This document shows, in pieces, positions 4,270 to 38,093 of a stretch of DNA of 38,200 nucleotides. The DNA comes from Candidatus Gastranaerophilales bacterium (GTDB lineage Bacteria > Cyanobacteriota > Vampirovibrionia > Gastranaerophilales > Gastranaerophilaceae): the NCBI GenBank assembly GCA_944322855.1, contig CALUQG010000020.1, positions 1 through 38,200 of the forward strand, in the 5' to 3' direction. Positions within the stretch are counted from its first letter, which is position 1, and every line of letters begins with the position of its first letter. Made by a program: the position numbers and the translations under genes. The notes under the pieces are model-generated. The model saw only the letters and a list, made by a program, of their open reading frames with translations. It did not search any database and was not told the origin of the DNA.

Positions 4270-4407
4270 TATTAAGTCAAATGTAGTGAATTATAGATTG
4301 AACACATTCTAAAAAAAGTCATGTGCTATATCCTGAAACACCATGATAATAGCATTGCTGCAGATTGAGTCTGCGAAAGTAGTATGTTTACAACAATTTT
4401 TTCAAAA
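4270..4407. other. Spacer between the M15 gene and tRNA-Thr
   Basis: No coding frame with a start signal was seen. It holds a short hairpin (GCAGA-CTCAA-TCTGC on the minus strand) downstream of tRNA-Thr with no T-run, so it is a weak candidate for 3'-end formation only. Confidence 0.4.
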
Positions 4408-4480
4408 TGCCGGTGACAAGGTTCGAACTTGCGACCTGATCATTACGAATGACCTGCTCTACCAGCTGAGCTACACCGGC
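4408..4480 (-). tRNA. tRNA-Thr (anticodon CGU)
   Basis: On the minus strand a complete 73-nt cloverleaf can be folded: acceptor GCCGGTG/CACCGGC, D-arm GCTC-AGCTGGTA-GAGC, anticodon arm GGTCA-TTCGTAA-TGATC with anticodon CGT (reads ACG), variable AGGTC, and T-arm GCAAG-TTCGAAC-CTTGT. The discriminator base is A and CCA is not encoded, unlike tRNA-Leu later in the window. Its first nine bases are the last part of the 90-bp tandem repeat that lies immediately 5' of it. It lies downstream of the GH32-like gene on the same strand. Confidence 0.96.
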
Positions 4481-4752
4481 AAAAATATTCAATTATCAAA
4501 GGAGCTGGCAGAGCAGGTGCTCTACAATCTAACTCCGTTCCGTTGTACTCCACTGGGGGCTTACACCGGCAAAAATATTCAATTATCAAAGGAGCTGGCA
4601 GAGCAGGTGCTCTACAATCTAACTCCGTTCCGTTGTACTCCACTGGGGGCTTACACCGGCAAAAATATTCAATTATCAAAGGAGCTGGCAGAGCAGGTGC
4701 TCTACAATCTAACTCCGTTCCGTTGCACTCCACTGGGGGCTTACACCGGCAA
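4472..4752. repeat. 90-bp tandem repeat, three copies plus an 11-bp partial, merging into the tRNA-Thr 5' end
   Basis: Copies start at 4472, 4562 and 4652, and an 11-bp partial copy starts at 4742. The three full copies differ by a single base (T to C at 4726). Read with the tRNA, each unit is GCCGGTGTA (the first nine tRNA bases), about 61 bp of GC-richer sequence containing ACCTGCTCTGCCAGCT, and a 20-bp AT-rich leader (TTTGATAATTGAATATTTTT). The 16-mer is the reverse complement of the tRNA D-arm segment AGCTGGTAGAGCAGGT, allowing one G-U pair. The array fills all the space between the GH32-like stop codon and the tRNA. Because 90 is a multiple of three, several frames stay open across it; they are not genes. 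Confidence 0.95.
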
Positions 4753-4753
4753 T

Positions 4754-6346
4754 CTAGTTGTGTATGGATTTTAGTTTATAAAAATTTAAACTCTCAATTT
4801 TTGTTTCTCCTTCAGAAGAAAATCTTATATCATTTGAGCCCTTATCAGGATATATTCTGCTGCTCATTGCAAGAGCTCCGTCATTTGCAAAAATTTCAAT
4901 TGAAGATTTATCTACAAATATTCGCAGTTTTATCTTGTTATTATCCATCAAAGGCAAAACAGCTTCTCTTTCTCCTTTAAGAACTTTTCCTGATTTGTCT
5001 CTATTGAGTTTAAGCATTTTTGTATTTTTATCATAACTCAAAAGCGTTTCTTGTGTATCAGAAGCTCTTAGTTTTATTGAAAAAGATTTTGCATTTGTCA
5101 TATCCGCAACAATCTCCATTTCGAAGACATCGCCTTTTATATTTGAATATTCTTTTTCAGATTTTATTGTTTGCTCTTTCAATTCATATTTTTCATTACG
5201 TAAGGTGTTCAATTCTTTAATAGGCATGGTAATTATTTTCCCGTTTGAGATGGTTAATTCTCTTGGTAAAGACATCATGCCTGCCCAATGGTCAGAACTT
5301 TCGGGATTAGGGTTTCCTTCCATAGAAAGTCTTCCAATAAATATGTGTCTTCCATCTGTAATTGTAATAAATTGTGGAGCATAAAAGTCAAAACCGTGGT
5401 CAAACAGCATAAATGCACTTTTTTGTGAAAATCGTCCGGTATTATAATCTAATTTTCCTATAAAAGCTCCGGAATTATATTTGTTCAAATATTTTTTTTC
5501 GTGAGGTTTAATACCGGCAGTTGTTATTGACAGCAGATCGTTTCCTCTAACATGAAGCAGTGCCGGTGTTTCCCAGGTGCTGCCCATTTCTCCTTTTTGT
5601 CCTAGTGCTGTAACATTTATGAAAACCCAGTTTCGTAAATCCTTACTTTTAAACAGTAATACTGCTCCATCATTTGTTTGCTCATACTTTGTTCCGATGA
5701 TTGCATAATATCTGTCTTCAATTTTCCAAACATAAGGATTATTAAAATTTTGTGAAGAAAATTTTAGAGATGAATAATGCGGAGCCATTTTTATTACAGG
5801 ATTGTTTGCTGATTTAGCAAAGTTAAGTCCATCATTGCTCATTGCAAGATTTTGAGTTTGATGCTTGTTCCCGTTAGTTTCTGTTGTATTGGCTGTGTAA
5901 ATTAAGTATAATGTATCACCTTCTGTGATTGCACTTCCTGAAATGATGCCATCTTTGTCATATGCTTCAGATGGTGACAGTGCAGTTTTTTGAGTTTGCC
6001 AATTAACTAAATCAGGGCTTGAAAAATGTCCCCAAACAGTTTTATTTCCATCAGCAAATTTTATTTCATTTTCGTAAAACAGATGATATTCATTCTTAAA
6101 AAGAGCAAATGCTGCAGGATTTTTCATTATGTATCCCGTTGATGCGAGATGATATTGCGGATACCATGCGCTTTTTTCAATTTTATGTTTCGAAATAGCT
6201 TTTATTGCATTGTCTGAAGATTTCAATAGATTGGACGTATCAACAGCATTCGCCATAGAATTCATTGAAAAAATCAGCATAGCAATAACAAATATTGCTA
6301 AATACTTCATTGAAAGCGACAGTGTATTTGCAGAAAAATTTTTCAT
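4754..6346 (-). CDS. Exported GH32-fold protein lacking both catalytic aspartates
   Basis: A 530-residue protein with a signal peptide (hydrophobic core about 15-30, ANA cut site near 34), a five-bladed propeller and a C-terminal sandwich of the GH32 family (levanase, inulinase, invertase). Family marks are clear: YPQYHL, SGSAI, DFYAPQ, WAGMMSLPREL (about 354-364) and LRIFVDKSSIEIFAND near the end. The catalytic positions are altered: the nucleophile motif WMNDPNG reads YIMKNPAAF (Asn76 where Asp is needed), the RDP motif reads NNP (Asn202-Asn203), while the acid/base Glu259 is kept in WETP. It is therefore probably a fructan- or sugar-binding pseudo-enzyme rather than a hydrolase. The start is ATG 6346 with GAGAG 8 nt upstream, preferred over an in-frame TTG five codons earlier. 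Confidence 0.88.
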   Translation of the reverse strand: MKNFSANTLSLSMKYLAIFVIAMLIFSMNSMANAVDTSNLLKSSDNAIKAISKHKIEKSAWYPQYHLASTGYIMKNPAAFALFKNEYHLFYENEIKFADGNKTVWGHFSSPDLVNWQTQKTALSPSEAYDKDGIISGSAITEGDTLYLIYTANTTETNGNKHQTQNLAMSNDGLNFAKSANNPVIKMAPHYSSLKFSSQNFNNPYVWKIEDRYYAIIGTKYEQTNDGAVLLFKSKDLRNWVFINVTALGQKGEMGSTWETPALLHVRGNDLLSITTAGIKPHEKKYLNKYNSGAFIGKLDYNTGRFSQKSAFMLFDHGFDFYAPQFITITDGRHIFIGRLSMEGNPNPESSDHWAGMMSLPRELTISNGKIITMPIKELNTLRNEKYELKEQTIKSEKEYSNIKGDVFEMEIVADMTNAKSFSIKLRASDTQETLLSYDKNTKMLKLNRDKSGKVLKGEREAVLPLMDNNKIKLRIFVDKSSIEIFANDGALAMSSRIYPDKGSNDIRFSSEGETKIESLNFYKLKSIHN

Positions 6347-6485
6347 AAATGATACTCTCAAATAATAAGCATATAAATAATATCATAAACATAAAATTTA
6401 CAAAGAATTTAAGCAAAGGCAATTTTTTTTTCAATAATGTTTTTATATATAGGTATGGTAGTAAAGTAATATAGTGTGTAGATTT

Positions 6486-37837: not shown

Positions 37838-38015
37838 AGTGCTCCGCCACAATACACGTAGTTGAAAATTAAATAATCTGCCCTGGTGGCAAGAACCGGA
37901 GAGGGGCAGAGCAAGCAAAAACAATTGAGTATTGTTTTTGCCGAGGCGGTCAGAACGCACGAAGTGCTCCGCCACAATACACGTAGTTGAAAATTAAATA
38001 ATCTGCCCTGGTGGC
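37838..38015. repeat. 53-bp interrupted direct repeat that includes the tRNA-Leu 5' end
   Basis: The 53 bp from 37838-37890 recur at 37963-38015, 125 bp apart. The second copy ends with the first 11 tRNA bases, GCCCTGGTGGC; the first is followed by a diverged continuation (AGAACCGG against GGAATCGG of the tRNA). Each copy has TCCGCCAC (37843 and 37968), the reverse complement of GTGGCGGA (38011-38018) in the tRNA. The last 18 bp before the tRNA, TTGAAAATTAAATAATCT, resemble the tRNA-Thr leader. Confidence 0.9.
37915..37941. other. Perfect 11-bp hairpin between the repeat copies
   Basis: GCAAAAACAAT and ATTGTTTTTGC form a perfect stem with a TGAGT loop inside the 125-bp repeat interval. No T-run follows it in either orientation. 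Confidence 0.7.
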
Positions 38016-38093
38016 GGAATCGGTAGACGCGTCGGACTTAAAATCCGATTGGACTCACCTCCAGTGCCAGTTCAAGTCTGGCTCAGGGCACCA
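38005..38093 (+). tRNA. tRNA-Leu (anticodon UAA)
   Basis: An 89-nt leucine tRNA with long variable arm. Acceptor GCCCTGG pairs with TCAGGGC; the anticodon arm is TCGGA-CTTAAAA-TCCGA with anticodon TAA (reads UUA); T-arm TGCCAG-TTCAAGT-CTGGC; and CCA is encoded (38091-38093), unlike tRNA-Thr. A strong terminator follows at once. The first 11 bases belong to the upstream 53-bp repeat. Confidence 0.97.

What the first reader, a model, noticed from the sequence alone, without database searches (positions are those of the whole stretch)
4408..4752. Tandem repeat upstream of tRNA-Thr carries an anti-D-arm sequence
Three 90-bp units, identical except for one base, lie immediately 5' of tRNA-Thr. Each contains the first nine tRNA bases and ACCTGCTCTGCCAGCT, which can pair with all 16 bases of AGCTGGTAGAGCAGGT in the tRNA D-arm (15 Watson-Crick pairs and one G-U). 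In a precursor transcript the unit next to the tRNA could sequester its D-arm and block folding or RNase P cleavage. Copies this similar imply recent amplification or ongoing conversion.
Basis: partly seen in the sequence, partly recalled or inferred. Interest (0 to 1): 0.8.

Follow-up and report, generated by a model that had tools for sequence, protein, structure and literature searches.

The report
Tandem tRNA-linked repeats before tRNA-Thr
The three 90-bp repeats in front of this tRNA gene belong to a genome-wide set of arrays in a gut bacterial lineage (Gastranaerophilales), in which copies of a tRNA's own end plus small DNA hairpins pile up beside tRNA genes; they match a little-understood repeat type known from E. 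coli (tRNA-linked repeats), but here also at the 5' end, and they look more like a DNA-level by-product than a switch for the tRNA.

Summary
In detail: three 90-bp units (one substitution among them) lie directly 5' of tRNA-Thr(CGU), each with the tRNA's first nine bases and a 16-base antisense of its D-arm. It is not an isolated oddity. In this genome 15 of 33 examined tRNA genes carry a duplicate of their own end within 400 bp (swap control mean 0.49; outgroups 1 of 34), at 5' or 3' ends. Units share one plan: tRNA-end copy, a hairpin core where the D- or T-loop should be, often a tRNA-specific antisense of that arm, then the native flank. Cores (types A and B) recur at different tRNAs across the family; type B also occurs away from tRNAs and on a phage contig, so cores spread. 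Array-less congeners have a plain tRNA-Thr just behind the same gene. The same plan is in the E. coli tRNA-linked repeats (TLRs: tyrT, argQZYV, lysV), which have no known function as a class. The 5'-linked form and the family-wide scale were not found in the literature searched. D-arm sequestration as regulation is weakly supported: the predicted cost to the cloverleaf is small here and not conserved in relatives. Best reading: a new 5'-linked variant of TLRs, made and amplified at DNA level.

The parts
4407..4481 (-). tRNA-Thr(CGU), intact
   Evidence: ARAGORN and Rfam RF00005 66.7 bits
4481..4570 (-). unit 1, next to the tRNA: copy of the tRNA 5' end (4562-4570), type A core (about 4520-4561), hairpin with antisense D-arm (4503-4518), leader TTGATAATTGAATATTTTT (4481-4499)
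4571..4660 (-). unit 2, identical to unit 1; antisense D-arm at 4593-4608
4661..4750 (-). unit 3, outermost; one substitution at 4726; antisense D-arm at 4683-4698; starts 3 nt behind the stop codon of the GH32 gene
4754..6361 (-). GH32-like glycosidase gene directly upstream and co-oriented; in array-less congeners its end is about 10-25 nt from the tRNA
   Evidence: the name rests on sequence knowledge, relatives found
38005..38093 (+). tRNA-Leu(UAA), second tRNA of the window, also with a 5'-linked unit
37880..38004 (+). 5'-linked unit of tRNA-Leu: copy of the 5' end GCCCTGGTGGC, hairpin core, GCACGAAGTGC hairpin, antisense TCCGCCAC, leader TTGAAAATTAAATAAT; the tail of an earlier unit lies at 37838-37879

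Best explanation
The feature is a 5'-linked tRNA-linked repeat (TLR) array, one of many in this genome and family. Shown: each unit is a copy of the tRNA's own 5' end whose D-loop is replaced by a hairpin core, usually followed by a tRNA-specific antisense copy of the arm and a pre-tRNA leader, so the real tRNA next to it stays intact; cores recur at unrelated tRNAs, and type B also occurs away from tRNAs. Inferred: units arise at DNA level. A hairpin core enters (or a replication template switch occurs at) the hairpin-forming D- or T-arm; the fold-back copies the arm as antisense, and re-use of the flank duplicates the tRNA end. The resulting direct repeats then expand and contract by slippage or unequal recombination, giving near-identical tandem units. 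The antisense D-arm is then mainly a scar of this fold-back, not a regulator.
For: Own-end duplicates at 15 of 33 tRNA genes here versus swap control 0.49 and 1 of 34 in outgroups. Same unit plan at Thr, Phe, Lys, Met, Arg and others, with mirror-image 3' versions. Type B core 18 times in the genome, 0 in the reversed control, in all 23 genomes of the genus and 71 of 118 relatives. Type B also inside a dispersed repeat, with and without the core at a given site, and on a phage contig without a tRNA. Type B arms pair at 88.7% against 47.2% for mismatched arms, with only 12 of 621 cells G-T. Array-less congeners show the plain tRNA-Thr behind the same gene. Antisense arm specific to its own tRNA in 29 of 48 5' and 20 of 39 3' units. 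E. coli tyrT, argQZYV and lysV repeats have the same order of parts.
Against: No enzyme or event was observed; the fold-back step is inferred. The type A core at Phe and Thr is alike over most of the unit while the tRNA-specific parts differ, which simple slippage does not explain. The order antisense - core - end copy is kept from E. coli to Gastranaerophilales, which could mean selection or a dedicated machinery. The 5' leader motif (TTGAAAATTnAATA) is kept in units and could serve transcription or processing.
Confidence: 0.55

Rival explanations
1. Dedicated mobile hairpin system: a trans-acting enzyme, perhaps an HUH/Y1 REP-associated transposase (RAYT), moves hairpin cores into tRNA arms with duplication of the tRNA end.
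For: RAYT genes (NF047646, E 1e-35 to 1e-42; PDB 4er8 TnpArep 6e-24) lie within about 1.1 kb of a tRNA gene in 8 of 12 cases in the genus (chance 0.057 each, P about 5e-8) and within 1.5 kb in 7 of 18 elsewhere. In L253 the RAYT sits inside a type B hairpin beside tRNA-Phe; in L252 a RAYT-type REP sits inside a tRNA-Arg unit that lacks it in G016.
Against: The window's genome has no Y1 gene, nor have most congeners with arrays. RAYTs carry their own REP (GTAGGTTGGG..CCCAAC), unlike the cores, and look like passengers. G001 has 44 type B copies but only two PF00589 hits, taken to be the XerC/XerD housekeeping pair; IS110 is nearly absent.
Confidence: 0.22
2. Regulatory leader: the antisense D-arm of the nearest unit sequesters the tRNA D-arm in the precursor and blocks folding or RNase P cleavage.
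For: Own-tRNA specificity of the antisense. For Met, Arg and Lys the predicted cost to the cloverleaf rises by about 9-14 kcal/mol with units. Precursor with one unit folds 3.2 sd better than shuffles.
Against: Cost small and not conserved for Thr and Phe; local hairpin competes; mirrored 3' arrays; many congeners lack the array; plain units without antisense exist (L231, L222).
Confidence: 0.12
3. Ordinary tandem duplication at one locus or an assembly artefact.
For: The window genome is a 33-contig assembly; copies are nearly identical.
Against: Independent assemblies of several congeners show arrays at the same tRNA; 15 of 33 tRNA genes affected.
Confidence: 0.04

Closest known systems
tRNA-linked repeats (TLRs) of E. 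coli, e.g. tyrT/tyrV 178-bp repeats with RttR and Tpr, argQZYV, lysV
   Same: Tandem or single units beside a tRNA gene, each ending in a copy of that tRNA's own end; shared hairpin core across tRNAs (GGCCCGAAGGGC type); tRNA-specific antisense of the T-arm in tyrT and lysV, weaker in argQZYV. As a class no known function (PMC8144298).
   Different: E. coli units lie 3' of the gene and carry 18-19 bp of the 3' end; the window's array lies 5', carries the 5' end (9-11 bp) and an antisense D-arm. Cores are unrelated in sequence. Here nearly half of the tRNA genes are affected, at both ends.
REP sequences and RAYT (REP-associated tyrosine transposase)
   Same: Small palindromic cores in multiple copies; RAYT genes cluster beside these tRNA genes in relatives.
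   Different: Cores lack the RAYT's own REP motif; no RAYT in this genome; copies concentrate at tRNA ends.
Att sites of tRNA-integrating phages and islands
   Same: A copy of a tRNA end restores the gene and leaves a direct repeat.
   Different: Units of about 90-130 bp without genes; G001 has no integrase hits beyond two taken to be XerC/D; tandem identical units; 5' ends used.

Membership tests
tRNA-linked repeats (TLR) | Unit abuts a tRNA/rRNA gene and contains a copy of that gene's own end | tested here: met
   GCCGGTGTA in each of three units; 15 of 33 tRNA genes in the genome
tRNA-linked repeats (TLR) | Copy is of the 3' end (18-19 bp) and lies downstream of the gene (PMC8144298) | tested here: not met
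   Window array is upstream with the 5' end; 3' versions exist at other tRNAs of the same genome, e.g. Gln, Glu, Leu-CAA. So filed as a 5'-linked variant, not as a strict member
tRNA-linked repeats (TLR) | Hairpin core shared between different tRNAs plus tRNA-specific antisense arm (derived here from E. coli loci) | tested here: met
REP/RAYT system | Y1 transposase in the genome | tested here: not met
   0 matches of PF01797 in the 98% complete window genome
REP/RAYT system | Palindrome with 5' GTAG foot related to the RAYT's flanking REP | tested here: not met
   RAYT REPs are GTAGGTTGGG..CCCAAC; the window core is different
T-box or other known leader RNA | Match to an Rfam family | tested here: not met
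   Only tRNA at gathering score in the window; no leader family at its cut-off in 11 array loci
IS110 bridge-RNA element | DEDD/Transposase_20 recombinase present | tested here: not met
   0 in the window genome, 3 of 25 genomes searched
Integron attC cassette | IntI integrase acting on folded single-strand sites | not tested
   Integrase hits were counted but not typed as IntI

The most novel reading that the evidence does not exclude
tRNA gene ends are the target of a dedicated, so far unrecognised hairpin-based insertion process that copies the target's arm in antisense and duplicates the tRNA end; it works at both ends of tRNA genes, spans at least Gastranaerophilales and Enterobacterales, and explains the origin of E. 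coli tRNA-linked repeats.
Probability: 0.3. Interest if true: 0.85.

Novelty: new variant of a known kind. Interest (0 to 1): 0.62.

Why it matters
TLRs have been known in E. coli since 1978 without an accepted origin or function. A lineage in which nearly half of the tRNA genes of a genome carry them, at both ends, with many species to compare (array present or absent at the same tRNA), makes their origin testable. The mirrored 5' form argues that they are not simply 3'-trailer sRNA genes. They may also bear on why assemblies of this gut lineage break at tRNA genes.

Tried and rejected
Isolated local duplication: rejected. Phage or plasmid repeat: no match for the unit; a longer query with the tRNA met only tRNA-like matches among the plasmid rows listed. 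IS110: nearly absent. Tyrosine integrase as a general cause: G001 has only two hits. RAYT as the direct cause in this genome: absent. Known RNA family: none. Promoter in each unit: only one promoter-like match in the region, upstream of the array, within chance. Type B as a common viral element: of 80 viral-contig matches read, one was palindromic. The library holds no paper with all of 'tandem repeats', 'tRNA genes' and 'Melainabacteria'.

Full report
Observation. tRNA-Thr(CGU) lies at 4407-4481 on the minus strand and is preceded by three 90-bp units that differ by one base (4726). The window is one whole contig (C20) of a 2.01-Mb, 33-contig, 98% complete genome.

Not unique. A search of relatives found the same kind of array 5' of tRNA-Thr(CGU) in several congeners and a related one 5' of tRNA-Phe in others, including other genera. 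In congeners without an array the tRNA follows the end of the same GH32 gene by about 10-25 nt, so the array is an addition between the gene's stop codon and the tRNA. In the window genome 15 of 33 tRNA genes examined carry a copy of their own 5' or 3' end within 400 bp outward; swapping ends among tRNAs gives 0.49 on average (maximum 3 in 200 rounds), and two outgroup genomes give 1 of 34. 13 of 36 tRNA genes lie within 500 bp of a contig end, against 0.59 expected, which suggests that arrays break assemblies and that copy numbers are lower bounds. The window's second tRNA, Leu(UAA), has such a unit too.

Anatomy. Reading along the tRNA, a 5' unit is: copy of the acceptor 5' strand to about position 10-11 (..GGC/AGC); a hairpin core where the D-loop should be; a sense piece of the D-arm; in many units an antisense copy of the arm; and a leader with TTGAAAATTnAATA just before the true tRNA, a motif also seen before array-less tRNAs. 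3' units are the mirror: flank, often a terminator, antisense and/or sense T-arm, inverted core, copy of the 3' end. Cores come in types. Type B (ACTCTGCCGA..GAGAGG) occurs 18 times in this genome, beside tRNA genes or at contig ends, with none in the reversed control; it is in every genome of the genus, 71 of 118 relatives, and in none of the class-level outgroups. Its arms pair at 88.7% against 47.2% for arms of random others, with several pair types per position and very few G-T pairs. It also sits in a dispersed repeat with and without the core at a given site and in an intergenic stretch of a phage contig, so it spreads. The window carries type A, which is alike at Thr and Phe apart from the tRNA-specific parts.

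Antisense arm. The antisense is specific to its own tRNA: it scores above every other tRNA in 29 of 48 5' units and 20 of 39 3' units. It is not universal, and in the window it can form its own local hairpin. Enforcing the cloverleaf costs 2.2 kcal/mol in the bare tRNA-Thr and 4.6, 4.8 and 6.1 with one, two and three units; in congeners the change ranges from nil (L012) to about 6 kcal/mol, in Pro it is nil, in Met, Arg and Lys larger. These are energies of unmodified RNA without tertiary contacts. So the sequestration model is possible for some tRNAs but is not a conserved property.

Closest known. The E. coli tyrT locus, fetched here, has 178-bp repeats (3.1 copies), each with the tRNA-Tyr 3' end, an antisense T-arm, a sense T-arm piece, hairpins and again the 3' end. 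The argQZYV and lysV trailers show the same plan with a shared core GGCCCGAAGGGC. These are the tRNA-linked repeats: 22 at ten loci, 18-19 bp identical to the 3' end of the gene upstream, and as a class no known function (PMC8144298). The window's array shares the plan but sits at the 5' end with a D-arm antisense; I found no description of that in the literature searched, which covers open-licence papers only.

Mechanism. I favour a DNA-level origin: fold-back at a hairpin-forming tRNA arm combined with entry of a spreading hairpin core, then expansion between the direct repeats. Shown are the anatomy, the specificity, the spread of cores and the presence/absence pattern; the copying steps are inferred. 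A dedicated enzyme is not excluded. RAYT genes cluster beside these tRNA genes in relatives, and in two loci RAYT or its REP sits inside a unit or core, but this genome has no Y1 gene, so RAYT looks like a passenger of the hotspot.

Verdict. Observation confirmed; regulatory reading weak; amplification reading right. A new, 5'-linked and family-wide variant of tRNA-linked repeats.

Noticed in passing
37838-38004: The window's other tRNA, Leu(UAA), carries its own 5'-linked unit (125 bp) and the tail of an earlier one.
   Followed up: yes
G000, 33 contigs: 13 of 36 tRNA genes lie within 500 bp of a contig end (0.59 expected): tRNA-linked arrays seem to break assemblies.
   Followed up: yes
L221-L228, L233, L271 (G106, G030): A dispersed repeat (TGTCCGAGAAAG..GAGTGGC..TAGACAGC..GAACTGCTTTA) with 0-2 type B cores; one copy lies inside a RAYT gene (L271).
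   Followed up: partly
L253 1186-2050: A RAYT gene with its own REPs sits inside a type B hairpin beside tRNA-Phe, with a tRNA 3' end copy at its far side.
   Followed up: partly
4407-6361: tRNA-Thr directly follows a co-oriented GH32 gene in many congeners with only about 10-25 nt between: possible mRNA-tRNA co-transcript.
   Followed up: no
L127 (G000:C4, tRNA-Arg CCG): The Arg unit holds two mutually exclusive hairpins, one followed by a T run, resembling a terminator/antiterminator pair.
   Followed up: no
L337 3448-3493: A palindromic type B core in an intergenic stretch of a viral contig, without a tRNA gene.
   Followed up: partly
L098 (G013:C32): A 347-aa integrase gene lies directly beside the arrayed tRNA-Phe (C32:14707-15180).
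   Followed up: no
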